The notes below the pieces were generated by a model. The model worked only from the letters and a program-made list of their open reading frames with translations. It did not search any database and had not been told where the DNA came from. From assembly GCA_029261855.1 (NCBI GenBank), contig JAJDAN010000042.1:62001-126000 (forward strand): a stretch of DNA of 64,000 nucleotides, read 5' to 3'. Shown one piece after another: positions 26,940 through 56,956 of this stretch (position 1 is its first letter; each line of letters starts with the position of its first letter). The DNA is from Deltaproteobacteria bacterium. GTDB taxonomy: Bacteria; Myxococcota_A; UBA9160; UBA4427. The position numbers were made by a program, and so were the translations under genes.

Positions 26940-28088
26940 TCAGTCGATGTGCGGCGCCCCAGCGATCAACCGGCGCCGCGCGGCGAGACCGACGAGCCCA
27001 AGACCCAGCAGCACCGCCGTCCCCGGCTCGGGGATCGTCGCCACGAACGCCTCGGTCTCGCCGGCGGGGTTGTTCCCGTAGCCGACCACCGTCAGGCCGT
27101 TCGCCGAGACCTGGCTTGCTTCCACGAGCTCCCAGCCCGTCATGTCGATGCCCTCGAGCTCGAGCAGCTCGAGCAGGGATCGCATGCCGTTGTCCGCGTC
27201 CCAGATGAACGCGACGTTCGAGGTGCCGTCGTGGGCCGAGCCGACGATCACCGAGCCGTCGCGGGACGTGTCCTCCGCACGACCGGAGCCCGACCCGCCC
27301 GGCAAGCCTGCCAACGGGACGAGACCGTCGGCGTCGGTCCAGCGAAAAGCGTTCCCGTCCGCGAATCCCACGACCGTCGAGCCGTCGGCGGAAACCCCAA
27401 GCGCCTCACCGGCCAGACTCGCGACGACCAGGCCATTGATCGCGTCATAGCGATACGGCCGCTCGATCCAGTCGTCGTAGTGTCCGGTGGAGCCGACGAT
27501 CACGGATCCATCGGCACTGACGTCGAGCGCCAGGCCGAAGCCGACGTAGCCCTGCAACGGAATGATGGGCGCGCCCATGACCAGGGGGTACGGCTCGCTG
27601 TTCTGGAAGTACTGCTCCCCGACGGCGAGAGCCCCGTCCGCAGACGTGGCGTGGAACCGGACGCCCCAATCGACCCCGTCGCGGTGGGTCCACGTATCCG
27701 TCGCGATGTCGTACGAGAAGCCATGCTCCCCGTACGTGGGCGTCGGGTCGTGCCAGCGGTGGCTGCCCACGATGGTCGATCCGTCGTCCGACACGCCCCA
27801 GGCCTGGACGCCTTCGAACGACAGGCTTCGTTCGTGCTGTGGAGGCAGTTCGGGCAGACCGATCGACTGCATGCCGCTGCCGGCCTGGTAGGTAAAGCTG
27901 TGCAGAAGGCCGTCCGAGCCACGGCTCTGCCCGACCACCAGGCTGCCGTTGCCGGAGACCCCGGTGGCGATGCTGTAGGGGTTGGTCGGGTCGAGGGTGC
28001 CGAGCCCCTGGAAGCTCGAGGACGCGAAGCCGGAACCCGCCCCGAACACCAGAAACGAGAGCACAGCCAGAGCAGACAGCCTACGCAT
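26940..28088 (-). CDS. PEP-CTERM protein with HAF repeats
   Basis: The ATG at 28088 gives 382 residues. A signal peptide (LAVLSFLVFGAGSGFA) leads into repeats of about 45-60 residues, each with GVSxDGS-xxVG (GVSGNGSLVVG, GVSDDGSTIVG, DVSADGSVIVG, GVSADGSTVVG). These are HAF-type extracellular repeats that form a beta-propeller-like fold. The end PEPGTAVLLGLGLVGLAARRRL is a PEP-CTERM tail. It is one of two clear PEP-CTERM proteins in the window, so the host should have an exosortase. Confidence 0.88.
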   Translation of the reverse strand: MRRLSALAVLSFLVFGAGSGFASSSFQGLGTLDPTNPYSIATGVSGNGSLVVGQSRGSDGLLHSFTYQAGSGMQSIGLPELPPQHERSLSFEGVQAWGVSDDGSTIVGSHRWHDPTPTYGEHGFSYDIATDTWTHRDGVDWGVRFHATSADGALAVGEQYFQNSEPYPLVMGAPIIPLQGYVGFGLALDVSADGSVIVGSTGHYDDWIERPYRYDAINGLVVASLAGEALGVSADGSTVVGFADGNAFRWTDADGLVPLAGLPGGSGSGRAEDTSRDGSVIVGSAHDGTSNVAFIWDADNGMRSLLELLELEGIDMTGWELVEASQVSANGLTVVGYGNNPAGETEAFVATIPEPGTAVLLGLGLVGLAARRRLIAGAPHID

Positions 28089-29092: not shown

Positions 29093-30181
29093 ATGAGCAG
29101 CCCCCGCGTCATCCGCAAGAAGACCGGCAACTTCCTGGAAGACTTCAAGCCCGGGCAGGTCCTGCGCCACAAGGGCGGCAAGACCATCACCGAGGGGCTC
29201 TTCACGACCTTCGGCGACTTCTCCATGTCGACGAACCCGCTCACGAAGAACGCCCGGGTCGCCCGGGCCCACGGCTTTGAGGGGCTGGTCTGCTCCCCCG
29301 GTCTCGTGATGCTCGTCAGCTTCAGCCAGACGGTGGAAGACGTCTCGGAGAACGCCCGCGCGAACCTCGAGTACATCGACATGCGCTTCGGCGCGCCGGT
29401 CTACGTGGGCGACACCATCGAGGTCGAGACCAAGGTACTCGGGGTCCGCACCTCGTCGAGCCGCCCGAACCTCGGCATCGTGCATGTGCAGTCGACGGCG
29501 CGGAAGAACATCGGCGCCCCCGACGAAGCCATCGTCATGACCTACCAGCGCAAGGTGCAGGTCTACAAGGACGACGAGGCGACCCCCGTCGAGAGCTTCC
29601 AGATCGAGCCCGACGACGTCGCCTGCGAGCTGTGGCTGCCGGAATACCGCAAGGACGCGGACTACAAGTCGCTCGCGCACCTCTTCCGGCCCGACGCCTA
29701 CTTCGAAGATCTCGAACCCGGCACGCGCATCGAACACTCCCGCGGCCGCACCGTCACCGACGAACACATCCACCTGACGGGTATCCTCGACAACACCAGC
29801 CAGGTGCACTGCAACCAGCACATGATCGACCTCGATCCGTCGCGCTACGTGGGCGGCGAGTTGATCATCTTCGGCGGCATTCCCTTCGTGCTGTGCCTGG
29901 GCATCTCGGGGCCAGACGTCGGCGACAACGCCCTCGGCGACCTGATCTACCGCACCGGCCGACACACAGCCCCGTTGCAGAAGGGCGACACCGTCTTCGC
30001 CGCCACGGAGATCCTCGAGAAGAGCGACCTGCCCGGCCGAGACGATCTCGGACGCGTCTCGACCCGGCTGCTCGGATACAAGTTCGTGAAGAACGAGGAA
30101 GCCGACGGCGGCCAGGAGCAGGTCCAGATCTTCGAGTTGGAGCGCGAGATCGCGGTCAAGCGCCGCAGCCACTATCTCTAA
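29093..30181 (+). CDS. Mesaconyl-CoA hydratase-like double hot-dog protein
   Basis: A 362-residue double hot-dog protein. It opens with GNFLEDFKPGQVLRHKGGKT and has a repeated hydratase-type layout (ANLEYIDMRFGAPVYVGDTI, then NTSQVHCNQHMIDLDPSRYV and RTGRHTAPLQKGDTVFAATE). These resemble the mesaconyl-CoA (beta-methylmalyl-CoA) hydratase of the ethylmalonyl-CoA pathway. A malyl/methylmalyl-CoA-lyase-like gene is 5 kb downstream and ethylmalonyl-CoA mutase is at 53962, which supports this assignment. A related MaoC hydratase role is possible. Confidence 0.78.
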   Translation: MSSPRVIRKKTGNFLEDFKPGQVLRHKGGKTITEGLFTTFGDFSMSTNPLTKNARVARAHGFEGLVCSPGLVMLVSFSQTVEDVSENARANLEYIDMRFGAPVYVGDTIEVETKVLGVRTSSSRPNLGIVHVQSTARKNIGAPDEAIVMTYQRKVQVYKDDEATPVESFQIEPDDVACELWLPEYRKDADYKSLAHLFRPDAYFEDLEPGTRIEHSRGRTVTDEHIHLTGILDNTSQVHCNQHMIDLDPSRYVGGELIIFGGIPFVLCLGISGPDVGDNALGDLIYRTGRHTAPLQKGDTVFAATEILEKSDLPGRDDLGRVSTRLLGYKFVKNEEADGGQEQVQIFELEREIAVKRRSHYL

Positions 30182-30319: not shown

Positions 30320-30468
30320 ATACGTTCCCTCGCATGGGAACGAGTTCACGAAGAAGCAGTGAAGTCATGCGGCGGCAGCCGCTGCCCGAGCCGCCCTGCA
30401 CCACGCGAGAGGCGCTCGCAAGTCCGGGCGAGAAGGGCGAGCCCGGCGCGGCAGTAGGAGATGACCTA

Positions 30469-31596
30469 GTGGACCCGCTGATCGGCAAGCTCTACGAGGC
30501 AGCCGTCCAGCCCGCGGAGTGGCCTCGCTTCCTCGAGGATCTTGCGGCGGTCGTCGGGGCGGACGCGATGTCCCTGCTCGCCGCCTCCGTCGACGGGCCC
30601 GGCATGCGCGAGCTGACCTTCGACGTCGGAACCGACGGCCAGGCTGCCAAGGACTACCGGGAGTACTTCGGGGCTCTCGACCCCTACATCGAGGCGGGCT
30701 CTTTGGACCTGCCGGCGGGCAAGGTCATCCGGTCGGACACCGTGGTCAGCGATGCGGACCTCGTTCGCACCGAGTTCTACAACGACTTCTACAAGCGCAA
30801 CGGCTGGCATCACGGCTTCGGGGCGAAGATCTTCGAAGACAGCGAGGGCGTCGCCGCCACGCTGACAGGGCATCGCCGCCAAGACGCGGGTCCCTTCGGC
30901 CCTGAAGCACTGGACGTGCTGTCGCGACTTCTGCCGCACCTGCGCCGCGCCCTGGCGATACGCCGACAGGTCGAGGGGATCGAGCTGGAGCGCGACGCCG
31001 GAAGCCAGCTTCTGGAACGCGTGTCCATCGGCACGTTGCTCGTCGACCAGCGCGGAAGGCTGGTCCGCACGAACCGCATCGGAGACGAGATCCTCGCCGC
31101 AAACGACGGCTTGCGGATTGGGGCCGAGGGACTGGAAACGGCGACGCCCAAGCAGACGGCGGCGCTGCGCCGAGCGATCGCAGGCGCTGCAGAGACGTCG
31201 CGGGGCGAGATCGGCTCGGCCGGCGGTCGGCTTCGAGTAACGCGGCCGTCGGGCGGACGTCCGTACCTGCTCGAGGTCTCTCCCGTCGACCGCGGGGCCG
31301 AGGTCTGGGGCTCCACCAAGTGCCTCGCGGCGATCCTGGTAACCGACGGCAACGGCGGCATCCAGCCGGACATCGATGCCTTGCGCACCTTCTACGACCT
31401 GACCCCCGCCGAAGCCGAGTTGACCGCCATGCTCGCCCACGGCCTCTCTCTGGACGAGGCCGCCGAACGGCGCGGCGTGAGTCGCAACACGGCGCGCGGC
31501 CAGCTCAAGCGCATCTTCTCGAAGACGGGCACCAATCGACAGGCCGAGCTCATCCGGCAGGTGCTGCAGGGACCCGCCGGATTCGCACGACGCTGA
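30469..31596 (+). CDS. LuxR-type transcriptional regulator
   Basis: About 375 residues from GTG 30469, which has a TAGGAG ribosome site eight bases upstream. An upstream in-frame ATG at 30334 has none. The N-terminal half, roughly 300 residues, is a sensor with a PAS-like look (LYEAAVQPAEWPRFLEDLAAVVG). The C-terminal helix-turn-helix reads LTPAEAELTAMLAHGLSLDE then RGVSRNTARGQLKRIFSKTG. It lies between the mesaconyl-hydratase-like gene and the CoA-ligase operon, so control of both is plausible. Confidence 0.85.
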   Translation: MDPLIGKLYEAAVQPAEWPRFLEDLAAVVGADAMSLLAASVDGPGMRELTFDVGTDGQAAKDYREYFGALDPYIEAGSLDLPAGKVIRSDTVVSDADLVRTEFYNDFYKRNGWHHGFGAKIFEDSEGVAATLTGHRRQDAGPFGPEALDVLSRLLPHLRRALAIRRQVEGIELERDAGSQLLERVSIGTLLVDQRGRLVRTNRIGDEILAANDGLRIGAEGLETATPKQTAALRRAIAGAAETSRGEIGSAGGRLRVTRPSGGRPYLLEVSPVDRGAEVWGSTKCLAAILVTDGNGGIQPDIDALRTFYDLTPAEAELTAMLAHGLSLDEAAERRGVSRNTARGQLKRIFSKTGTNRQAELIRQVLQGPAGFARR

Positions 31597-31625
31597 CCGT
31601 GATCCGCATCCTGTCGCGTCGCGAT

Positions 31626-31654
31626 CGCCCCGGCCGTCTCGTACGACCGGGGCG
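31626..31654 (+). terminator. Rho-independent terminator after the regulator
   Basis: CGCCCCGG (31626-31633) pairs with CCGGGGCG (31647-31654), with CGT/ACG extending the stem. It is followed by TTTCGCTT. It is 30 bases past the stop of the LuxR-type gene and separates it from the ligase operon. Confidence 0.75.
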
Positions 31655-31735
31655 TTTCGCTTGGGTGTGAGGCCGCGACCCGCGCCTCCGAGGGGTGGAT
31701 CCCCCGCGCGAAACGCAATAGAGTCCGCGCGCTTA

Positions 31736-31755
31736 CGCCGTCCGTCCGGACGGCG
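31736..31755 (+). promoter_or_regulatory. Inverted repeat CGCCGTCC-N4-GGACGGCG upstream of the ligase operon
   Basis: Eight-base arms at 31736-31743 and 31748-31755 lie about 115 bases upstream of the CoA-ligase beta start. The shape fits a dimeric regulator site or a hairpin in the leader. Confidence 0.4.
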
Positions 31756-31868
31756 ATCCCGCTTCGCGCGAGACCCCCCGGAGACGCCGCGATCCAAGGC
31801 GCACCCCGCTCTCTCGTCCGAATCGGGTTCGAATCCCGAGTCCACAGGACGAGACAGAGAGGTTCGCC

Positions 31869-33077
31869 TTGCGATTCTACGAGTACGAAGCGAAGGCCCT
31901 GTTCGCGCGGCACGGCCTGCCCATGGGCGCGAGCCGGGTGGTCGAGTCCGCCGCAGCGGCGCGCGAGGCGTTCGACGCCATCGGTGGCCCGTGCGTCCTC
32001 AAGGGCCAGGTGCTGTCCGGCGGCCGCATGAAGGCCGGCGCCGTGAAGTTCGCCGACACCGCGGATGAGGCCGCCGCCCACTTCGACGCCATCATGCCCG
32101 TCGAGGTCAAGGGCCAGAAGTCGCGCTCGGTGCTCGTCGAGAGCAAGAGCGAGATCGTCCAGGAGTACTTCGCCGCAGTCACCTGGGACGGCCGCGCCAA
32201 GCGCCCGGTGCTGGTCTTCAGCGACATGGGCGGCATCGACATCGAGGAGGTCGCGGAGACGCACCCCGACCACGTGTCGAAGACCCACTTCTCGTCGATT
32301 CTCCCGCTCTCGCCCCGAGTAGCCAAGGAGGCCATCGGCGCCACCGGCGTAACGGGCAGCGACCTGAACCGACTCACGCCGATCATCTTCGAGCTGATGC
32401 AGCTGTTCCTGCGTTACGACCTGACGCTGGCCGAGATCAACCCCATCGGGAAGCTCGCCGACGGCCGCTTCATCGTGCTCGACGGCCACATCGATCTCGA
32501 GGCCGAGGCGCGGGGGATCCACAAAGAGCTGCTCGACGAGCTGGGGATCGGCGACGACGAGACCCGCCAGGCCCGACCCCCGACAGAGTTCGAAATCGCC
32601 GGCGCGCGCGTCAACGCCGTCGACCACCGGGGCGTCGCGGGCAACGTCGTCGAATTCGACGGCAACCTCGGCCTGGTGATCGGCGCCGGCGGCGGCTCGC
32701 TCACCCTGTTCGACGCCGTCCGGAAGCACGGGGGCAAGCCCGCCAACTACTGCGAGATCGGCGGCAACCCGAGCGTTTCGAAGGCGCGCGAGCTCACCAA
32801 GCTCATCCTCGGCAAGCCCGGAGTCGAACGCATCGCCGTCATGATGAACGTCGTGTCGAACACACGGGTCGACATCGTGGCACGAGGCGTGGTCTCCGGT
32901 TGCATCGAAAGCGGCAAGGACCCGGCGGAAGCCATCGCCATCTTCCGCATCCCGGGCGCCTGGGAAGACGAGGGCTTCAAGATCCTCGAGAAGTACGGCG
33001 TCGAGTACTGCGATCGCAGCGTGTCCATGTACGAGGCCGCCGGTCGCGCGGTCGCCAAGATGGGAGCCGGGAGCTAG
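31869..33077 (+). CDS. Acyl-CoA ligase beta subunit, malate/succinate-CoA ligase type
   Basis: A 402-residue ATP-grasp protein from TTG 31869 (GAGAGG site upstream). It has YEYEAKALFARHGLPM, VLKGQVLSGGRMKAGAVKF, and a C-terminal LVIGAGGGSLTLFDAVRKHGG domain. The architecture is that of SucC and of malate-CoA ligase MtkA. The downstream lyase-like gene favours malate or methylmalate activation rather than the TCA cycle, but substrate choice cannot be read from sequence. No other TCA genes are adjacent. Confidence 0.85.
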   Translation: MRFYEYEAKALFARHGLPMGASRVVESAAAAREAFDAIGGPCVLKGQVLSGGRMKAGAVKFADTADEAAAHFDAIMPVEVKGQKSRSVLVESKSEIVQEYFAAVTWDGRAKRPVLVFSDMGGIDIEEVAETHPDHVSKTHFSSILPLSPRVAKEAIGATGVTGSDLNRLTPIIFELMQLFLRYDLTLAEINPIGKLADGRFIVLDGHIDLEAEARGIHKELLDELGIGDDETRQARPPTEFEIAGARVNAVDHRGVAGNVVEFDGNLGLVIGAGGGSLTLFDAVRKHGGKPANYCEIGGNPSVSKARELTKLILGKPGVERIAVMMNVVSNTRVDIVARGVVSGCIESGKDPAEAIAIFRIPGAWEDEGFKILEKYGVEYCDRSVSMYEAAGRAVAKMGAGS

Positions 33078-33080
33078 CCG

Positions 33081-33989
33081 ATGTCGATCCTGATCAGCAA
33101 GGACACGCGCTTCATCGTCCAGGGCATCACCGGCCGTGAGGCCATCAACCTCACGCGCGAGAATCTCGACTACGGCTCGAAGATCGTGGGCGGCGTCACC
33201 CCCGGCCGCGCCGGGCGCGACGTCTACGGCGTGCCGGTCTACGACTGCGTGCGGGACATCGTGAAGGCCCACGGCGCGGTCGACGGTTCGATCGTGTGCG
33301 TGCCGCCGCGCTTCACCCAGGACGCCGTCTTCGAGGCGCTCGAGAACGAAGTCAAGCTCATCGTCGTCGTCACCGAGAACGTGCCGCGACGCGAAGTCGC
33401 GCAGATGGTCGAGCTGGCCGAGCTGCGCGGCGCCCGCATCATCGGGCCGAACTGTCTCGGCATGATCTCGCCGGACGAGGCCAAGATGGGCGGCATCGGG
33501 GGTCCCGCGGCCAACACCCGTCAGGCCTACACGCCGGGCAACATCGGCGTGATGTCGCGATCCGGCGGCATGACGACCGAGATCGCGAGCACCCTGACGA
33601 ACGCGGGCCTCGGCCAATCCACTGCGGTCTCGATCGGCGGCGACGCCATCATCGGCAGCAGCTACGCCGAGCTGATGCCGCTGTTCGAGGCGGACCCGGA
33701 CACGAAGGCCATCGCCATCTATTCCGAGCCCGGCGGCCGCATGGAAGCCGAGCTGGCGGACTGGATCCGCACCAACAAGTCCCGGCTGCCCGTCGTCGCC
33801 TTCATGGCGGGGCGCTTCATGGACGAGATGCAGGGCATGCGCTTCGGCCACGCCGGCACCATCGTCGAGGGCGTCGAGGACACCACCGCCGAGAAGATCA
33901 AGCGGATGGAAGCGGCGGGCATCTCCGTCGCCGAGCGGATCGAAGAGATCCCGGAACTGCTGCGCAAGCGGCTCGCGGAGGTCAACTAG
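33081..33989 (+). CDS. Acyl-CoA ligase alpha subunit
   Basis: A 302-residue SucD-like protein with the CoA-binding start DTRFIVQGITGREAINLT, GGVTPGRAG, and the phosphohistidine loop RFGHAGTIVEG. It starts three bases after the beta subunit stop. Together they form the nucleotide-driven ligase that makes CoA esters from dicarboxylates. It is malate-CoA-ligase-like by context. Confidence 0.88.
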   Translation: MSILISKDTRFIVQGITGREAINLTRENLDYGSKIVGGVTPGRAGRDVYGVPVYDCVRDIVKAHGAVDGSIVCVPPRFTQDAVFEALENEVKLIVVVTENVPRREVAQMVELAELRGARIIGPNCLGMISPDEAKMGGIGGPAANTRQAYTPGNIGVMSRSGGMTTEIASTLTNAGLGQSTAVSIGGDAIIGSSYAELMPLFEADPDTKAIAIYSEPGGRMEAELADWIRTNKSRLPVVAFMAGRFMDEMQGMRFGHAGTIVEGVEDTTAEKIKRMEAAGISVAERIEEIPELLRKRLAEVN

Positions 33990-33991
33990 CC

Positions 33992-34213
33992 ATGCCCGGA
34001 CTCTTCATCGACGTGAAGGTCGACCCGGAAGTCGCCAAGGACGCGACCCTCGCGGCGAAGCTCGCCGAGGTGTGCCCGGTCAGTATCTTCAAGGCCAGTG
34101 AGCGCGGGCTCGAGATCGTCGAATCCGAGCTCGACGAGTGCGTGCTCTGCGACCTGTGCCTCGAGGTCGCTCCCGGCAAGGTCGAGATCGTCAAGCTCTA
34201 CGAGCAGAAATAG
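33992..34213 (+). CDS. Half-ferredoxin: single four-Cys cluster protein
   Basis: A 73-residue protein. One cysteine lies in EVCPVSIF, and three more in [14 protein letters not shown] (CxxCxxC). It lacks the usual fourth Cys of that second motif (Ala instead). In classic 2[4Fe-4S] ferredoxins, the second cluster uses exactly CxxCxxC from motif II plus the Cys-Pro of motif I, so this looks like a one-cluster half-ferredoxin. It sits two bases after the alpha ligase and 31 bases before the lyase, so an electron-transfer role in this CoA pathway is possible. No partner is recognisable. Confidence 0.75.
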
Positions 34214-34244
34214 AACGCGCGCGGCGCGACACCAGGAGACCCCC

Positions 34245-35294
34245 ATGCAGAACCCCAAGGATTTCTTCAAGCCCAAGGCCCTCGGCGCGCCGGAGCCCCT
34301 GCGCGAGATCCCCGTACGCCCGTCGCGCATGATCCACTTCTTCAACCCGGGCAACGAGCGCATGCGCTCGAAGGTCCCGGACCTGGCCAAGCGCTGCGAC
34401 GTGCTGCTCGGCAACCTCGAAGACGCCATCCCGGCGGACGAGAAGATCCAGGCGCGCGAAGGCCTCGTGAAGTGCGCCAACGAGGTCGACTTCGGCGACT
34501 GCCAGCTGTGGACCCGGGTCAACAGCCTCGACTCGCCCTGGTGCCTCGACGACCTGACGACCCTGGTGCAGGAGATCGGCGACAAGCTCGACGTCATCAT
34601 GGTGCCCAAGGTCGAAGGCGCCTGGGACATCCACTACGTCGACCAGCTGGTCGCGCAGCTCGAGGCGCGCGCCTGCATCAAGAAGCCCATCATGCTGCAC
34701 GCCATCCTCGAGACCGCCCTCGGCGTCGCCAACGTCGAAGAGATCTGCGCCGCCAGCCCACGCATGCAGGGCCTGTCCCTGGGCCCGGCGGACCTGGCCG
34801 CCAGCCGCCGCATGAAGACCACCCGCGTCGGCGGCGGACACCCGGGCTACCTGGTGCGCGAGGATCCGACCGAAGGCAAGAGCGACGACGCCCGCGCCGT
34901 CGCCCAGCAAGACCTCTGGCACTACACCACCGCCCGCATGGTCGACGCCTGCGCGGCCAACGGCATCCTGCCCTACTACGGCCCCTTCGGAGACATCAAG
35001 GACGAGCTCGCCACCGAGGACCAGTTCCGGAATTCCTTCCTGATGGGATGCGTCGGCGCCTGGTCGCTGCACCCGGTGCAGATCGACATCGCCAAGAAGG
35101 TCTTCAGTCCTCCCGTCGAAGAAGTGAAGTGGGCCATGAACGTCATCGAGCAAATGGGCGACGGCACCGGCACCGTCATGATCGACGGCAAGATGCAGGA
35201 CGACGCCACCTACAAGCAGTGCAAGGTGATGGTGGGCCTGGCCGAGATGCTGGCCGAGAAGGACGAAGACCTGAAGAAGGCGTACGGCCTGTAA
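34245..35294 (+). CDS. L-malyl-CoA / beta-methylmalyl-CoA lyase (CitE-like)
   Basis: A 349-residue HpcH/HpaI-CitE aldolase: [30 protein letters not shown], then [14 protein letters not shown] and the [12 protein letters not shown] loop with the Mg-binding Glu/Asp, and [13 protein letters not shown]. This matches the malyl-CoA lyase branch. It cleaves methylmalyl-CoA to propionyl-CoA and glyoxylate, or malyl-CoA to acetyl-CoA and glyoxylate. With the mesaconyl-CoA-hydratase-like gene and ethylmalonyl-CoA mutase, an ethylmalonyl-CoA route is the best reading. Confidence 0.85.
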
Positions 35295-35345
35295 CAAGCC
35301 GGCGAGAAGGTTCGAGAGGCCGGTGCGCACCGTGGTCTTCCGGGG

Positions 35346-36356
35346 ATGCCAGACGTGTCGCGCGCAGAGAAGCCCCAGGTAGCAATCGCCGACGTCGAGC
35401 GTTGGCTCGCAGCGCGACACGCGGGCGTGGCGATCACCGGCCTGACCCCCCTGGCGGGCGGCTTCTGGTCGTCCGCCTACGCCTACCGAGCCGGCGACGA
35501 CGAGCTCGTCCTGCGCCTGGGCGACATGGACGAAGGCTACAGGATCGACGAAGCCGCCATGCGCTTCGCGAGCCCGGACCTGCCCGTCCCCGCGCTGCTC
35601 GCACGCGGCCACGCCTTCGACGGCTTCTTCGCCATCTCCCGCCGTCACTACGGCCGCTTCATCGAGACCGCCCCCGAAGCCGAAGCGAGCGCCATCGGCA
35701 ACGCCATGGCAAGGCTGCTGCGCGCACTCCGCGCCGCGCCCGTGAAGCCCGACGAGGGCGTCACGTGGTACGAACCCGGCGCGAAGGGCTCGACGACCTG
35801 GCACGACTGGCTCCGCGGCGGCATCACCGATGACGGGGCCGCGCGCACGGGAGGCTGGCGCGAGAAGCTGCGCGCGAAACCGCGCATCGACGCCCTCTTC
35901 CGCAGCTGCGAGTCGCGCATCCACGGCCTCCTCCCCAGCTGCCCCGAGCGCCGAGACCTCGTCCACAGCGACCTGCTCCACCAGAACGTCCTCGTCGCCG
36001 ACGACGACCCGTCCCGGGTGACCGCCGTCTTTTCCTGGAAGTGCTCGGCCCGGGGCGACTTCCTCTACGACGTCGCCTGGTGCACGGTCTGGAGCCCCTG
36101 GCACCCGGCCATCGCGGGCGCCAACCTGTGGCAAAGGACGCTCGAAGCACCGGACCTCGGCGACACCGATCTCGCCGACGCGCCGCTGCGCCACCACTGC
36201 TACGAGCTGCAGATCGCCGCCGCACACCTCGGCTGGTACGCCCGGATCGACGACGACCACGAGCAAAACAAGCTGGCAGACGTCATCGACGGGATCCTCG
36301 AGCGCGGCCCACTCGCCACGCCGCCACCCCGCGGAACATCGCCAGCCCGCCGCTGA
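35346..36356 (+). CDS. Aminoglycoside-phosphotransferase-family protein (atypical Mg site)
   Basis: A 336-residue APH-fold protein. The catalytic loop is LVHSDLLHQN (His207, Asp209, Asn214), standing for HGDxxxxN. The metal-binding Asp that follows in the family (xDWE) is Ser230 (VFSWK), so phosphotransfer may be weak or altered. The terminal Pro/Arg-rich tail is not conserved. The cassette array begins about 165 bases further on. Confidence 0.78.
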   Translation: MPDVSRAEKPQVAIADVERWLAARHAGVAITGLTPLAGGFWSSAYAYRAGDDELVLRLGDMDEGYRIDEAAMRFASPDLPVPALLARGHAFDGFFAISRRHYGRFIETAPEAEASAIGNAMARLLRALRAAPVKPDEGVTWYEPGAKGSTTWHDWLRGGITDDGAARTGGWREKLRAKPRIDALFRSCESRIHGLLPSCPERRDLVHSDLLHQNVLVADDDPSRVTAVFSWKCSARGDFLYDVAWCTVWSPWHPAIAGANLWQRTLEAPDLGDTDLADAPLRHHCYELQIAAAHLGWYARIDDDHEQNKLADVIDGILERGPLATPPPRGTSPARR

Positions 36357-36390
36357 TATCCTGCAGCCAGGCGACCTGCGAAAGCGCGAT

Positions 36391-36451
36391 TCCGGCGATA
36401 TGCGCGCAACCCCCGCAGTCCAGAACACCAGATCCGGCGATAAGCGCGCAA
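36391..36451 (+). repeat. Direct repeat before the cassette array
   Basis: A 19-base sequence containing TCCGGCGATA then GCGCGCAA occurs at 36391-36409 and 36433-36451 with one mismatch. It lies immediately left of the region where the cassettes start. Its function is unknown; it may mark the edge of an insertion. Confidence 0.7.
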
Positions 36452-37757: not shown

Positions 37758-37859
37758 CGCGGTTCAAATGACGGCTGTACCGTTCTAGCATCAACTTTTT
37801 CAGGCTCGGCCGAGTCCGGTGGCGCTATTCCACGCCGCTGAGCGCCGGGTCCGTTGGGC
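37725..37859 (+). other. attC2
   Basis: GCCCAAC (37725-37731) and GTTGGGC (37853-37859) are exact reverse complements. Inside, GGCG pairs with CGCC, and GTGAAATAGCGC pairs with GCGCTATTCCAC with one mismatch. The size is 135 bases. This is the clearest site; it overlaps the end of cassette gene 2. Confidence 0.85.
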
Positions 37860-37935
37860 GGCGGAGCTCTCGACAGGACGCGATGGCACATGGGCGCCCG
37901 CACCGCACTTCGCGCCGGTCAGCTATTCTCCTGCC

Positions 37936-38154
37936 ATGGCGGAGTCCTGTCCCGAGATTCACTCGGATCCCGACCTTCTCGGAGGTGTGGCGGTCTTTCG
38001 AGGCACGCGTGTTCCTGTGAAGGCCCTGCTCGACTACCTGGAGGGCGGGCATCCACTCGCCGACTTCCTTGCGGACTTCCCCTCGGTCTCCCAGGCGCAG
38101 GCTGTCGCAGTGCTTGAGCACGCGAAGGAGCTTCTAGATTCGAGTGCTGCTTGA
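37936..38154 (+). CDS. Cassette gene 3: DUF433 antitoxin-like protein
   Basis: A 72-residue DUF433 (COG2442) protein, starting MAESCPEIHSDPDLLGGVAV with the family's short helix-turn-helix around RVPVKALLDYLEGG and FPSVSQAQAVAVL. DUF433 proteins pair with DUF5615 PIN-like proteins as toxin-antitoxin modules, and the DUF5615 gene follows with an 11-base overlap. The toxic component and mode of action are family knowledge, not visible here. Confidence 0.85.
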   Translation: MAESCPEIHSDPDLLGGVAVFRGTRVPVKALLDYLEGGHPLADFLADFPSVSQAQAVAVLEHAKELLDSSAA

Positions 38155-38458
38155 CGAGTGCGTGCCCAGGCGCCTCGGCCGAGAGCTCGGGGGGCATGAG
38201 GTCCGCACGGTCCCAGAAGAGGGTTGGGCGGGACTCAAGAACGGAGATCTCCTGGCTCGCGCGGCCGACCACTTCGACGTCTTCCTGACTGTCGACCAGG
38301 GACTCCCCTTCCAGCAGAACCTCCTGTCACTCGACCTGGCCATCGTTGCCATGAGAGCCCGGTCCAACGACATCGCAGACCTGCTTCCGCTCGTTGCCCA
38401 GGTGCTCGAGGCCATCGAAACAGCTCGGGCAGGAACCTTCGCGCTAGTTCAGAGCTAG
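38144..38458 (+). CDS. Cassette gene 4: DUF5615 PIN-like toxin
   Basis: A 104-residue DUF5615 (COG4634) protein starting at GTG 38144 (LLDECVPRRLG), or at ATT six bases upstream. The acidic active-site residues of the PIN-like fold are in LLDEC, in FLTVDQGLP and in the later ARSNDIADLL. It overlaps the DUF433 gene, which is its probable antitoxin. Toxin-antitoxin pairs stabilise cassette arrays. Confidence 0.85.
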   Translation: MLLDECVPRRLGRELGGHEVRTVPEEGWAGLKNGDLLARAADHFDVFLTVDQGLPFQQNLLSLDLAIVAMRARSNDIADLLPLVAQVLEAIETARAGTFALVQS

Positions 38459-47787: not shown

Positions 47788-48786
47788 TCAGCTGAGGGCC
47801 AGCATCTTCTCGATGGGTGCGAGCGCCTTCAGGCGGATGTCTTCGCGCACGGTGACCTGGGGCGTCAGGTCGCGCAGGCAGAGGTAGAGCTTCTCGAGCG
47901 TATTGAGGCGCATGTACGGGCAGCGGTTGCACGCGCAGCTCTCGTCCATGCCCGGCGCCTGGATCAGCTTCTTCTCGGGGGCGCGCTTCCAGATCTCGTG
48001 GAAGATGCCGTCCTCGGTGGCGATGATGGACACGCGCTTCGGGTCTTCGCAGGCGCGCTGGATGATGCCGCTGGTGGACGCGATGAAGTCGGCCTGGTCG
48101 AGGACGGCCTGGTCGCATTCGGGGTGGGCGAGCACCTCGGCTTGCGGGTGCTGCATGCGCAGTTTCTCGAGCCCCTGGGCGCTGAACAGCTCGTGCACCA
48201 CGCAGGCGCCCTGCCAGATGATCAGATCGTCCCGCCCGGCTTCCTTCGCAACGAAGCGGGCCAGGTGACGGTCCGGCGCGAAGATCAGGGGCCGGCCCTT
48301 GAAGTGCTCGACCATCTTCACGGCGTTCGACGACGTACAGATGAGATCCGACATCGCCTTCACTTCTGCGTTCGAATTGATGTAGGTGAGAACCGCCGCG
48401 CCTTCGTGTTCGGCGCAGAACTTCGCGAAGGCCTCCGGCGGACACCCGTCCGCCAGCGAGCAGCCGGCCTCCAGGTCGGGCACCACCACCGGCTTGTCGG
48501 GGTTCAGGATCTTGGCGGTCTCGGCCATGAAGTGGACGCCGCAGAAGGCGATTACATCGCAGTCGGCCTTCTGGGCGGCCCGCGCCAGGGCGAGGGAATC
48601 GCCGACCACGTCGGCGAGGTCCTGAACCTCGGACTCCTGGTAGTAGTGGGCGAGCAGCAGGGCTCGCCGCTCGCGCTTGAGGTCGCGGATCGCCTGTTCG
48701 AGATCGTCGGGCAGATCCAGGGCTTGCTTGCCCTGAGCGGCAAGACGGGCGGCGAGAGTGGCGGCGGGGTCGGCTGCTTGAGTCAC
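47788..48786 (-). CDS. nadA: Quinolinate synthase A
   Basis: A 332-residue NadA: LLLAHYYQESEVQDLADVVGD, FCGVHFMAETAKIL, WQGACVVHELFS and CACNRCPYMRLNTLEKL, which provide the three Cys of the 4Fe-4S cluster. It makes quinolinate from iminoaspartate and dihydroxyacetone phosphate in NAD biosynthesis. GTG 48786 was chosen by homology. No nadB or nadC lies beside it. Confidence 0.96.
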   Translation of the reverse strand: MTQAADPAATLAARLAAQGKQALDLPDDLEQAIRDLKRERRALLLAHYYQESEVQDLADVVGDSLALARAAQKADCDVIAFCGVHFMAETAKILNPDKPVVVPDLEAGCSLADGCPPEAFAKFCAEHEGAAVLTYINSNAEVKAMSDLICTSSNAVKMVEHFKGRPLIFAPDRHLARFVAKEAGRDDLIIWQGACVVHELFSAQGLEKLRMQHPQAEVLAHPECDQAVLDQADFIASTSGIIQRACEDPKRVSIIATEDGIFHEIWKRAPEKKLIQAPGMDESCACNRCPYMRLNTLEKLYLCLRDLTPQVTVREDIRLKALAPIEKMLALS

Positions 48787-53961: not shown

Positions 53962-55950
53962 ATGGACCTCCCCAGCATGACCGCACCCAAACGCGACCGC
54001 CCCTGGTTGATCCGCACCTACTCCGGCCACTCGTCCGCTCGCGCGAGCAACGAACTCTACCGGGCGAATCTCGCCAAGGGACAGACGGGCCTGTCGGTCG
54101 CCTTCGATCTCCCGACCCAGACCGGCTACGACGCCGACCATCCCCTGGCCCGGGGCGAGGTCGGCAAGGTCGGCGTGCCGATCGCGCACATCGACGACAT
54201 GAGCCAGCTCTTCGACCAGATCCCGCTGGCCAAGATGAACAGCAACCTCACCATCAACGCCACCGCTGCCTGGCTGCTCGCGCTGTACGCCGCCACTGCG
54301 GAGCGCCAGGGCGCAGACCCGGCCGCGCTCCAGGGCACCACCCAGAACGACATCGTCAAGGAATACCTGTCGCGCGGCACCTACGTGTTTCCGCCGGAAG
54401 CGTCCCTGCGCCTGATCACCGACATGGTGACCTACACCGTCGACGCCATCCCGAAGTGGAACCCGGTCAACATCTGCTCGTATCACCTGCAGGAAGCCGG
54501 CGCGACGCCCGTGCAGGAGATCGCCTACGCGATGGCGAACGCCGTCGGCGTGCTGGACGCCGTGCGCGCCCGCGACGACGTGCCGGAAGACGCCCTGCCC
54601 CGCATCTTCGGCCGCATCTCCTTCTTCCTGAACGCCGGCATCCGCTTCGTCGAAGAGGTGTGCAAGTGCCGGGCGATGACCGCCCTGTGGGACGACCTGG
54701 GACGCGACCGCTACGGCATCGAAGACCCCCAGATGCGCCGCTTCCGCTACGGCGTCCAGGTGAACAGCCTGGGCCTCACCGAAGCCCAGCCCGAGAACAA
54801 CGTAATCCGCATCGTGCTCGAGAGCCTGGGCGTCACGCTTTCGAAGAACGCCCGCACCCGCAGCCTGCAGCTACCGGCTTGGAACGAGGCCCTGGGCCTG
54901 CCGCGCCCCTGGGACCAGCAGTGGTCCCTGCGCATTCAGCAGATCCTCGCCTACGAGACCGACCTGCTCGAGCACGAGGACATCTTCGAAGGCTCGAAGG
55001 TGATCGAGGCGCGCACCCGCAGCCTGCAGGAAGAAGCCCTGGCCGAAATGCAGAAGGTGCTGGACATGGGCGGCGTGGTGGCGGCCATCGACAACGCCTA
55101 CATGAAGCAGCGGCTCGTCGAGTCCCACACGGCGCGCTTGCGTGCCATCGAATCCGGCGATCTGAAGGTGGTCGGCGTCAACGCGTTCACCGAGACCGAG
55201 CCCTCACCGCTCACCGCCGCCGGCAGCGATTCGATCCTGGTGGTGGACGAGGGCGCCGAGCGCGAGCAGATCGAACGCCTCGATGCCTTCCGCAGCAAGC
55301 GCAACGATGCCGACGTGAAGGGGGCGATCACGAACCTGCGCGACGTCCTCAAGAACGGAGGCAACGTCATGCCGCCGTCGATCCGGGCGGCTCACGCCGG
55401 GGTCACCACCGGGGAATGGGCCGACACCCTGCGCGACCTCTTCGGCGAGTACCGCGCGCCGACGGGCGTCACCGCCAGCGGGCGGGCTGCCACCAGCGCG
55501 ACCACCCAGGCCGTGCGCGCACGCGTGGACGCCGTCTCGGAAAAGCTCGGCCGACGGCTCAAGCTGCTGGTCGGCAAGCCCGGGCTCGACGGCCACAGCA
55601 ACGGCGCCGAGCAGATCGCGGTGGCCGCCCGGGACGTGGGCATGGAGGTCGTCTACGACGGCATCCGCCTGACCCCGGAAGAGATCGCGGCGTCCGCCCG
55701 GGACGAGGGCGTGCACGTGATCGGCCTGTCGTTGCTCTCGGGCTCTCACGGCGTGCTGGTGCTGGACGTCCTCAAGCGCCTGGCAGACCTCGGCCTGGGG
55801 GACATCCCGGTCGTGGTGGGCGGCATCATCCCCGAAGCCGACGCCAGCGAGCTTCGCGAAGCCGGCGTCCAGCGCGTCTACACCCCCAAGGACTTCGATC
55901 TCACGCGCATCATGGGAGAGATCGTGGACCTGGTCTCGGATGCCGACTGA
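53962..55950 (+). CDS. ecm: Ethylmalonyl-CoA mutase (methylmalonyl-CoA-mutase family)
   Basis: A 662-residue B12-dependent mutase. The N-terminal PWLIRTYSGHSSARASNELY and NLAKGQTGLSVAFDLPTQTG with YDADHPLARGEVGKVGVP match ethylmalonyl-CoA mutase better than methylmalonyl-CoA mutase. The cobalamin-binding domain (LLVGKPGLDGHSNGAEQIA) has Asp543 and His545 of DxHxxG. It converts ethylmalonyl-CoA to methylsuccinyl-CoA. Its last 11 bases overlap meaB. Confidence 0.88.
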   Translation: MDLPSMTAPKRDRPWLIRTYSGHSSARASNELYRANLAKGQTGLSVAFDLPTQTGYDADHPLARGEVGKVGVPIAHIDDMSQLFDQIPLAKMNSNLTINATAAWLLALYAATAERQGADPAALQGTTQNDIVKEYLSRGTYVFPPEASLRLITDMVTYTVDAIPKWNPVNICSYHLQEAGATPVQEIAYAMANAVGVLDAVRARDDVPEDALPRIFGRISFFLNAGIRFVEEVCKCRAMTALWDDLGRDRYGIEDPQMRRFRYGVQVNSLGLTEAQPENNVIRIVLESLGVTLSKNARTRSLQLPAWNEALGLPRPWDQQWSLRIQQILAYETDLLEHEDIFEGSKVIEARTRSLQEEALAEMQKVLDMGGVVAAIDNAYMKQRLVESHTARLRAIESGDLKVVGVNAFTETEPSPLTAAGSDSILVVDEGAEREQIERLDAFRSKRNDADVKGAITNLRDVLKNGGNVMPPSIRAAHAGVTTGEWADTLRDLFGEYRAPTGVTASGRAATSATTQAVRARVDAVSEKLGRRLKLLVGKPGLDGHSNGAEQIAVAARDVGMEVVYDGIRLTPEEIAASARDEGVHVIGLSLLSGSHGVLVLDVLKRLADLGLGDIPVVVGGIIPEADASELREAGVQRVYTPKDFDLTRIMGEIVDLVSDAD

Positions 55951-56956
55951 CGCAGCCCCCGCTTCTCGCGGGTCGTCTGGCGGCTCGTCGGCCCTGGCGG
56001 CCCGGCTGCTGGCCGGAGATCGCGCCGCGGTTCCCGAAGCCCTCAATCTCGTCGACGACACCCGCGCCCCCCAGCGCGAGCAGGCGCGCGACCTGCTCGA
56101 CACCCTGCAGCGAAATCGCGAGAGCCTGCGTGGGCATCGCGTCGGCATCACGGGTGCGCCCGGCGCCGGCAAGTCGACGCTGCTCGACGCCCTCGTCCGC
56201 AATCTGCGTCCGCGCGGACGCAGCGTGGGCATCCTGGCCATCGACCCGTCGAGCCAGCGCACCGGTGGCGCGCTACTCGGCGACCGCTTCCGGGTGCGTT
56301 CCGGCGCCAACGACGACGGCGTCTACCTGCGGTCGATGGCGGCGCGCGACCGGCTCGGCGGCATCGCGGACGCCACCGCGGCGAGCGTCGAGATCCTGGG
56401 CGCGGTGTTCGACTATGTGTTCGTCGAGACCGTGGGGGTGGGACAATCCGAGAGCGAGATCTCCCACGGCGTCGACACGCTCGTGTTCGTCGCCCAGCCC
56501 GGCGCCGGCGACAGCCTCCAATTCATGAAGGCCGGCATCCTCGAGCTGCCGGACGTGTTCGTCGTCAACAAGGCCGACATCGGCGCCGTGGCCGAGCGCA
56601 CCGCAAGCGAGCTGTCTTCGGGCCTCGGGCTCTCGACGCCCCGCGCCGACGGCTGGGAGGCCCCGGTGCTGCTGGTGTCCGCCCGGGACGGCGCCGGAGT
56701 GGACGCCCTGGTGGATGCCGTCGACGCTCACGCCCAGCACGGCCTGGAATCGGGTGCCCGGGAAGCCGGGCGGCGCGCGGGCCGGGCTCACGCGGTCTGT
56801 GCGGCCCTCGCCCAGCGCTACGGCGCCTACGGCCTCGAGCGGGTCGGGGGACGCGACGCCCTCGAGGTCCGGGTCCGGGAGGCCGAAGAGGAATCCGTCG
56901 CATCGCTCGTGCACCGGCTCGGTCAGTTCATCGAGGGCGCCCTCACCGGGCGCTGA
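55940..56956 (+). CDS. meaB: MeaB-type GTPase chaperone of a B12-dependent mutase
   Basis: A 338-residue MeaB/ArgK protein with Walker A GITGAPGAGKSTLLDAL near residue 72, VGILAIDPSSQRTGGALLGD, ETVGVGQSE and VVNKADIGAV. It protects and loads the cobalamin cofactor of its mutase. It overlaps the mutase gene, consistent with a dedicated partner. The adenosyltransferase gene lies on the other strand nearby. Confidence 0.93.
   Translation: MPTDAAPASRGSSGGSSALAARLLAGDRAAVPEALNLVDDTRAPQREQARDLLDTLQRNRESLRGHRVGITGAPGAGKSTLLDALVRNLRPRGRSVGILAIDPSSQRTGGALLGDRFRVRSGANDDGVYLRSMAARDRLGGIADATAASVEILGAVFDYVFVETVGVGQSESEISHGVDTLVFVAQPGAGDSLQFMKAGILELPDVFVVNKADIGAVAERTASELSSGLGLSTPRADGWEAPVLLVSARDGAGVDALVDAVDAHAQHGLESGAREAGRRAGRAHAVCAALAQRYGAYGLERVGGRDALEVRVREAEEESVASLVHRLGQFIEGALTGR

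What the first reader, a model, noticed from the sequence alone, without database searches (positions are those of the whole stretch)
33992..34213. Half-ferredoxin inside a CoA-ligase/lyase operon
The protein keeps exactly the four Cys that in a 2[4Fe-4S] ferredoxin build one cluster, drawn from both motifs, so it is not simply broken. It is locked between the ligase and the lyase. Neither enzyme needs electrons, so an unknown redox step or a sensor role is implied.
Basis: partly seen in the sequence, partly recalled or inferred. Interest (0 to 1): 0.6.

Follow-up and report, generated by a model that had tools for sequence, protein, structure and literature searches.

The report
Iron-sulfur partner of a CoA ligase
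A tiny single-cluster ferredoxin-like protein travels as a fixed companion with one particular CoA-attaching enzyme in several bacterial phyla, which suggests that an enzyme type not known to use iron-sulfur clusters has acquired an iron-sulfur subunit.

Summary
The 73-residue gene at 33992-34213 is real. It sits 2 nt behind a succinyl-CoA-synthetase-type alpha subunit (LigA) and before a Chloroflexus-type malyl-CoA lyase.

The association with LigA is close to absolute. In the 90 genomes searched in its class, LigA occurs in 66, the ferredoxin in 65 and both in 64; the three mismatches are contig ends. In 299 genomes of a second class, inferred to be Thermoleophilia, 76 have both and the four mismatches are contig ends. 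LigA lies directly upstream in 88 of 89 loci, the lyase within range in only 54. So the partner is the ligase.

The family reaches no Pfam or NCBIfam cut-off in any output shown. Its predicted fold is closest to the single-cluster ferredoxin-like domain of archaeal RNA polymerase subunit Rpo3, where the cluster helps assembly.

Best reading: a dedicated, probably structural [4Fe-4S] subunit of a dicarboxyl-CoA ligase, possibly redox- or iron-responsive. Direct binding and the cluster itself are not shown; the docking model was inconclusive.

The parts
33992..34213 (+). single-cluster ferredoxin-like protein (hFd), 73 aa; C28, C50, C53, C56
33081..33989 (+). LigA: succinyl-CoA-synthetase-type alpha subunit, 302 aa, keeps the GHAG motif around the phospho-histidine (role recalled)
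31869..33077 (+). LigB: ATP-grasp beta subunit, 402 aa (TTG start)
34242..35294 (+). Lyase: CitE/HpcH-type malyl-CoA / beta-methylmalyl-CoA / citramalyl-CoA lyase, 349-350 aa
   Evidence: best match 4l7z, E 1.8e-149
29093..30181 (+). MaoC-type double hot-dog protein over the mesaconyl-CoA hydratase cut-off (PF19315, 81.8 bits vs 26.5), 362 aa; found in 23 of 89 related loci
30334..31596 (+). probable LuxR/HTH-type regulator upstream of the ligase genes (weak Pfam matches, none over cut-off)
33977..33981 (+). GGAGG, likely ribosome site of hFd, inside the LigA gene
   Evidence: read directly

Best explanation
hFd is a dedicated small [4Fe-4S] partner, most likely a third subunit, of a distinct clade of succinyl-CoA-synthetase-type ligases (LigB-LigA) that activate a 2-hydroxy-dicarboxylate such as malate or citramalate (or run in reverse and make ATP from its CoA ester), coupled to a malyl/citramalyl-CoA lyase. 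The cluster is held by C28 of the first half and C50/C53/C56 of the second half of a ferredoxin fold. Its job is most likely to fold and anchor the subunit on LigA, as in archaeal RNA polymerase subunit Rpo3, and it may make ligase activity depend on iron or redox state. Shown here: the gene, its invariant cysteines, the fold prediction, gene overlap with LigA and near-absolute co-occurrence with LigA. Inferred: cluster binding, physical contact, the exact substrate and the structural or regulatory effect.
For: C28, C50, C53 and C56 are invariant in 79 of 79; P61 of the lost CP motif is kept in 78 of 79. Co-occurrence: in its class of 90 genomes LigA 66, hFd 65, both 64, with the 3 mismatches at contig ends; phylum sample of 282: both 52, LigA alone 2 (the same two contig ends), plus one hFd hit (G180) that is a two-motif ferredoxin-nitroreductase-like protein; class of G320, 299 genomes: LigA 77, hFd 79, both 76, with the 4 mismatches at contig ends. 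LigA is directly upstream in 88 of 89 loci; LigB was not found adjacent in 4 of them. Overlapping genes (-1 or -4 nt) in 38 of 82 LigA-hFd pairs. Invariant D48, E49, L52, L55 and the C-terminal K-L-Y (Y70 in 79 of 79) look like a fixed interface (inference). Rpo3 is the best solved-structure match by phmmer, Foldseek and VIA-align. A separate true SucC exists in the genome, so this ligase is not the TCA enzyme. All 8 genomes examined encode the lyase, including 6 with no adjacent lyase.
Against: No direct evidence of binding: the read-through LigB-LigA-hFd model had pTM 0.43 and decides nothing. No cluster has been seen. Conserved adjacency can also mean shared regulation. The Rpo3 match is only Z 7.9 with 61 residues, and photosystem PsaC, an electron carrier, follows at Z 6.8; profile searches rank NuoI and LctC, both electron carriers, above Rpo3. 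The divergent branch carries a fumarate-reductase-like flavoprotein a few genes downstream.
Confidence: 0.5

Rival explanations
1. hFd is a redox, oxygen or iron sensor that switches the ligase on or off: loss or oxidation of the cluster blocks or releases the active site, so that malyl-CoA formation or cleavage follows the redox state of the cell.
For: One-to-one pairing with the ligase; the pathway is not itself redox; Fe-S regulation of non-redox enzymes is known (glutamine PRPP amidotransferase, recalled; sensing suggested for Rpo3 in PMC5300874).
Against: No redox-dependent property was measured; invariance gives no sign of the direction of control.
Confidence: 0.2
2. hFd is a dedicated electron carrier serving an oxidoreductase of the same pathway encoded elsewhere, and only shares regulation with the ligase.
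For: Ferredoxin fold; profile matches to NuoI and LctC domains that carry electrons; a fumarate-reductase-like flavoprotein in the operon of the divergent branch (seen in L183 and L185), where hFd is also next to LigA.
Against: No oxidoreductase is common to the loci; no such flavoprotein was found among the neighbour genes of the main clade that were scanned (a part of the neighbour clusters only); it does not explain why hFd, and not another gene, tracks LigA with no clear exception.
Confidence: 0.15
3. hFd is an adaptor that holds ligase and lyase together so that the unstable CoA ester is passed on directly.
For: Lyase downstream of hFd in 40 of 89 loci; the lyase is present in all 8 genomes checked; in ATP-citrate lyase the homologous alpha part is joined to its lyase module (recalled).
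Against: The lyase is upstream or not adjacent in many loci (14 up, 21 none), and the divergent branch has a shorter CitE-type lyase instead.
Confidence: 0.12
4. The protein is a decaying two-cluster ferredoxin with no cluster and no role.
For: It lacks four of eight canonical cysteines.
Against: The remaining four are invariant across phyla and the gene is retained wherever LigA is.
Confidence: 0.03

Closest known systems
Ferredoxin-like domain of archaeal RNA polymerase subunit Rpo3/D (Sulfolobus; 2pa8, 7oqy)
   Same: Ferredoxin fold with one [4Fe-4S] site using one Cys of the first half and CxxCxxC of the second; best match by phmmer, Foldseek and VIA-align Z 7.9, 61 residues, rmsd 2.7. In Sulfolobus the cluster is oxygen-stable and supports heterodimer formation (passages of PMC5300874).
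   Different: Rpo3's is a domain inside a polymerase subunit; hFd is a separate 73-aa protein tied to a CoA ligase.
[quoted passage not shown]
   Same: One [4Fe-4S] cluster, motif C(x)17CxxCxxC (passages of PMC9232219); hFd has C(x)20-25CxxCxxC. Profile match E 0.001.
   Different: LctC's domain relays electrons to a flavin and is fused to EtfA; hFd stands alone and no flavoprotein was found linked to it in the main clade.
Classical 2[4Fe-4S] and 7Fe ferredoxins (Fer4_7, FdxA)
   Same: Fold and second-half motif.
   Different: Four of eight cluster cysteines are missing; below every family cut-off shown.
Malate thiokinase MtkAB + malyl-CoA lyase (serine cycle)
   Same: The same two kinds of enzyme side by side: SCS-type ligase and malyl-CoA lyase.
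   Different: LigB scores 140 bits against a cut-off of 604 for the malate--CoA ligase beta model; no Fe-S gene is known with MtkAB (recalled).
Malyl-CoA/beta-methylmalyl-CoA/citramalyl-CoA lyase of Chloroflexus (4l7z; organism and function recalled, the entry says HpcH/HpaI aldolase)
   Same: Lyase matches full length, E 1.8e-149.
   Different: Chloroflexus activates its acids by a CoA transferase (recalled), not a ligase with hFd.

Membership tests
2[4Fe-4S] bacterial ferredoxin | eight cluster cysteines in two CxxCxxCxxxCP motifs | tested here: not met
   Only four Cys in 76 of 79, five in 3 of 79; motif-1 C1-C3 and motif-2 C4 absent
2[4Fe-4S] bacterial ferredoxin | scores over a ferredoxin family cut-off | tested here: not met
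   Fer4_7 19 bits vs 27 for the window protein; of 79 relatives 47 match Fer4_7 at E up to 0.01, best 5.1e-05 (bit scores not shown for the others)
single-cluster ('half') ferredoxin domain, Rpo3/LctC type | one Cys followed by CxxCxxC about 17-25 residues on | tested here: met
   Spacing 20-25 in 79 of 79; LctC C(x)17CxxCxxC
single-cluster ('half') ferredoxin domain, Rpo3/LctC type | ferredoxin fold | tested here: met
   Model mean pLDDT 84.2, pTM 0.66; Foldseek probability 1.00 to 2pa8_D, E 1.7e-3; Z 7.9, moderate
single-cluster ('half') ferredoxin domain, Rpo3/LctC type | binds one [4Fe-4S] cluster | not testable with these tools
   needs UV-vis/EPR/Moessbauer
FixX / ETF-QO ferredoxin domain | homology to FixX and partnership with FixC/ETF-QO | tested here: inconclusive
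   Chain 7koe_D (Fix/EtfABCX) only at rank 18 in Foldseek (E 0.042); no such partner found in the loci
succinate--CoA ligase (SucCD) as TCA enzyme | scores over the SucC/SucD models | tested here: not met
   LigB 215.8 vs 375.55, LigA 290.9 vs 353.2; the genome's real SucC scores 517
succinyl-CoA synthetase superfamily (NDP-forming acyl-CoA ligases) | ATP-grasp beta, CoA-binding alpha, His loop GHAG | tested here: met
   PF08442, PF02629, PF00549/PF13607 over cut-off; GHAG aligned with solved SCS
malate thiokinase MtkAB | scores over the malate--CoA ligase model | tested here: not met
   140 bits vs 604; substrate itself not tested
malyl-CoA lyase, Chloroflexus type | full-length homology | tested here: met
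   4l7z E 1.8e-149, residues 6-349; activity not tested
LigBA-hFd as one complex | physical association | tested here: inconclusive
   Read-through model pTM 0.43

The most novel reading that the evidence does not exclude
A three-subunit, iron-sulfur-dependent branch of the succinyl-CoA synthetase superfamily: LigB, LigA and an obligate [4Fe-4S] subunit, whose cluster state gates the ATP-linked making or breaking of malyl/citramalyl-CoA in uncultured Myxococcota-like bacteria, Thermoleophilia and Chloroflexota.
Probability: 0.35. Interest if true: 0.75.

Novelty: new variant of a known kind. Interest (0 to 1): 0.58.

Why it matters
Succinyl-CoA synthetases, ATP-citrate lyases and malate thiokinases are textbook non-redox enzymes (recalled). 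A clade of them that occurs together with a small Fe-S protein in 64 of 90 genomes of one class and 76 of 299 of a second, and was never seen without it except at contig ends, means that either an Fe-S subunit has been overlooked in a central-metabolism enzyme family or a new redox control point on glyoxylate/malate metabolism exists. It also gives an unnamed, widespread protein family a testable partner.

Tried and rejected
Rejected: 'hFd is tied to the lyase'. The lyase is not within range in 21 of 89 loci while LigA is directly upstream in 88.

Rejected: 'LigBA is the TCA succinyl-CoA synthetase'. A true SucC is elsewhere.

Considered and not kept: an ethylmalonyl-CoA pathway or glyoxylate shunt as the source of glyoxylate. 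Neither crotonyl-CoA carboxylase/reductase nor isocitrate lyase reaches its cut-off in this genome, although a methylmalonyl-CoA-mutase-like protein and a MeaB-like protein lie 20 kb downstream (for the mutase; the MeaB name rests on position and on the homologue scanned).

Led nowhere: a viral-contig scan (none); the AlphaFold read-through of LigB-LigA-hFd, pTM 0.43, so neither docking nor its absence is shown. FixX appeared only at Foldseek rank 18, and no known family was reached by Pfam or NCBIfam cut-offs. Paper searches (listings only, except passages of PMC8262859, and PMC12517254) showed no paper naming such a subunit; the library holds open-licence papers only.

Full report
What is there. 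The window carries, on the + strand, a MaoC-type hydratase (29093-30181), a regulator (30334-31596), LigB (31869-33077), LigA (33081-33989), the 73-aa protein hFd (33992-34213) and a lyase (34242-35294). hFd starts 2 nt after the LigA stop, with a GGAGG inside LigA. It has exactly four cysteines, C28-x21-CxxCxxC, the ligand set of one cluster of a two-cluster ferredoxin, drawn from both halves.

Conservation of the protein. An alignment of 79 relatives (window plus 78 from the genome-contig scan, which reported 209 relatives and kept 80; two of those 80, L084 and L138, were left out of this alignment, L084 because no hFd gene was called in it and L138 because its 90-aa start-extended call was over my length limit) shows all four Cys, and also V30, I32, L47, D48, E49, L52, L55 and Y70, invariant. 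P61, the proline of the lost CP motif, is kept in 78 of 79 while the position before it, Cys in ordinary ferredoxins, is Ala in 68 of 79. The C-terminal K-L-Y is nearly fixed, with Y70 in 79 of 79. No family model reaches its cut-off for the window protein in Pfam or NCBIfam; for the 79 members the best Pfam E-value is 5.1e-05.

Fold and nearest relatives. The model of hFd alone has mean pLDDT 84.2 and pTM 0.66. Foldseek's best hit is the archaeal RNA polymerase D subunit 2pa8_D (E 1.7e-3); VIA-align gives Z 7.9 over 61 residues for the same chain, then other RNA polymerase subunits, with PsaC at 6.8. Z below 8 is moderate by the tool's own note. phmmer of the single sequence also puts Rpo3 first (E 0.00099), while profile searches rank NuoI and LctC above it. 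From passages of PMC5300874: Sulfolobus Rpo3 holds an oxygen-stable [4Fe-4S] cluster whose removal impaired heterodimer formation. From passages of PMC9232219: LctC holds one cluster with motif C(x)17CxxCxxC and relays electrons.

Association with LigA. In 30 loci from the first relatives search, LigA precedes hFd in 29 (L015 begins at a contig start) and the lyase follows in 27. The genes overlap by 1 or 4 nt in 38 of 82 measurable pairs, and 73 of 82 gaps are 17 nt or less.

Presence and absence. In the 90 genomes searched of its class: LigA (E up to 1e-90) in 66, hFd in 65, both in 64, neither in 23. The three mismatches (G031, G041, G077) and one genome with the pair split over two contigs (G070) are contig ends. 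In a phylum sample of 282 (which overlaps the class): hFd hits 53, LigA 54, both 52; the two LigA-only genomes are the same contig ends; the hFd-only hit, G180, is a 300-aa protein with a full second motif and a nitroreductase-like tail, not an orthologue (the label is my reading). In 299 genomes of the class of G320: LigA 77, hFd 79, both 76; 75 of the 76 are adjacent (74 by the script plus G598, whose genes overlap) and G606 has them on two contig ends; G572, G596, G600 and G602 are contig ends. That this class is Thermoleophilia is inferred from named relatives in the tree. Total loss of hFd with retention of LigA was not seen in any place with enough sequence to judge.

Spread and history. 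Named relatives come from Myxococcota/'Deltaproteobacteria', Binatia, Solirubrobacterales/Thermoleophilaceae and Chloroflexota. A LigA tree of 57 rows (a chosen subset of 96 LigA sequences at hand) recovers Thermoleophilia (83/92), Chloroflexota (100/100) and other groups as units, rooted only by a long SucD branch. A divergent branch in the class of G320 (L182-L185; LigA about 55% identical to the query) keeps LigA-hFd followed by a CitE-type lyase, with LigB upstream in the three whose contig reaches that far; L183 and L185, the two whose genes were scanned, carry a PrpD-family protein and a fumarate-reductase-like flavoprotein next, and L183 has a DctM transporter upstream. The hFd of these four has two more Cys in its first half, one at the place of the second Cys of motif 1 by my count. 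This fits stepwise loss from a two-cluster ancestor, but four sequences are few.

Pathway. The lyase is of the Chloroflexus malyl/beta-methylmalyl/citramalyl-CoA type (the enzyme's name is recalled from the entry code). All eight genomes examined carry it, six of them with no lyase next to hFd. LigB and LigA belong to the SCS superfamily but score below the SucCD and malate-CoA ligase cut-offs, and a genuine SucC is present elsewhere. So LigBA plus lyase most likely join malate or citramalate to acetyl-CoA plus glyoxylate or pyruvate, in either direction; the substrate is inferred. No crotonyl-CoA carboxylase/reductase or isocitrate lyase over cut-off was found in this genome.

How it works. 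The best-supported reading is a dedicated Fe-S subunit that folds and anchors on LigA. The docking test, a read-through LigB-LigA-hFd chain, gave pTM 0.43 and decides nothing. Sensor, carrier and adaptor readings stay open, in that order, and are set out as rivals.

Verdict. Novelty: a new variant of a known kind (a single-cluster ferredoxin domain as a stand-alone partner of a CoA ligase clade). No paper naming it was seen in the listings.

Noticed in passing
window 37819-38154 (+) and 38144-38458 (+): Two small overlapping genes that look like a DUF433 antitoxin and a DUF5615 PIN-like toxin pair (names recalled from the sequence, not searched).
   Followed up: no
window 53962-55950 (+) and 55940-56956 (+): Methylmalonyl-CoA-mutase-like protein (532 bits vs cut-off 876 for the mutase model) with an overlapping MeaB-like gene; homologues often follow the ligase-hFd-lyase cluster in related genomes (clusters c13/c14), so they may belong to the same pathway.
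   Followed up: partly
window 47788-48786 (-): Probable NadA-like quinolinate synthase (by analogy with cluster c4; not scanned itself), itself a [4Fe-4S] enzyme; the cluster recurs near the cassette in 26 gene calls of the loci, probably chromosomal neighbourhood only.
   Followed up: partly
L182-L185: Divergent operon LigB-LigA-hFd-CitE-type lyase, then PrpD and a fumarate-reductase-like flavoprotein (L183, L185), with a TRAP transporter (DctM) in L183; looks like breakdown of a branched dicarboxylate and is the place where a redox role for hFd would be most plausible.
   Followed up: partly
L041-L045: Five genomes of one genus carry two different lyase genes (about 350 and 279 aa) in a row before LigB-LigA-hFd.
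   Followed up: partly
window 26940-28064 (-): A secreted-looking protein ending in a PEP-CTERM-like sorting tail (my reading of the translation).
   Followed up: no
window 31392-33851 (-) and 34191-36428 (-): Very long antisense ORFs (819 and 745 aa) opposite the ligase and lyase genes; probably by-products of 68% GC coding sequence, as the codon-based call chose the + strand genes.
   Followed up: partly
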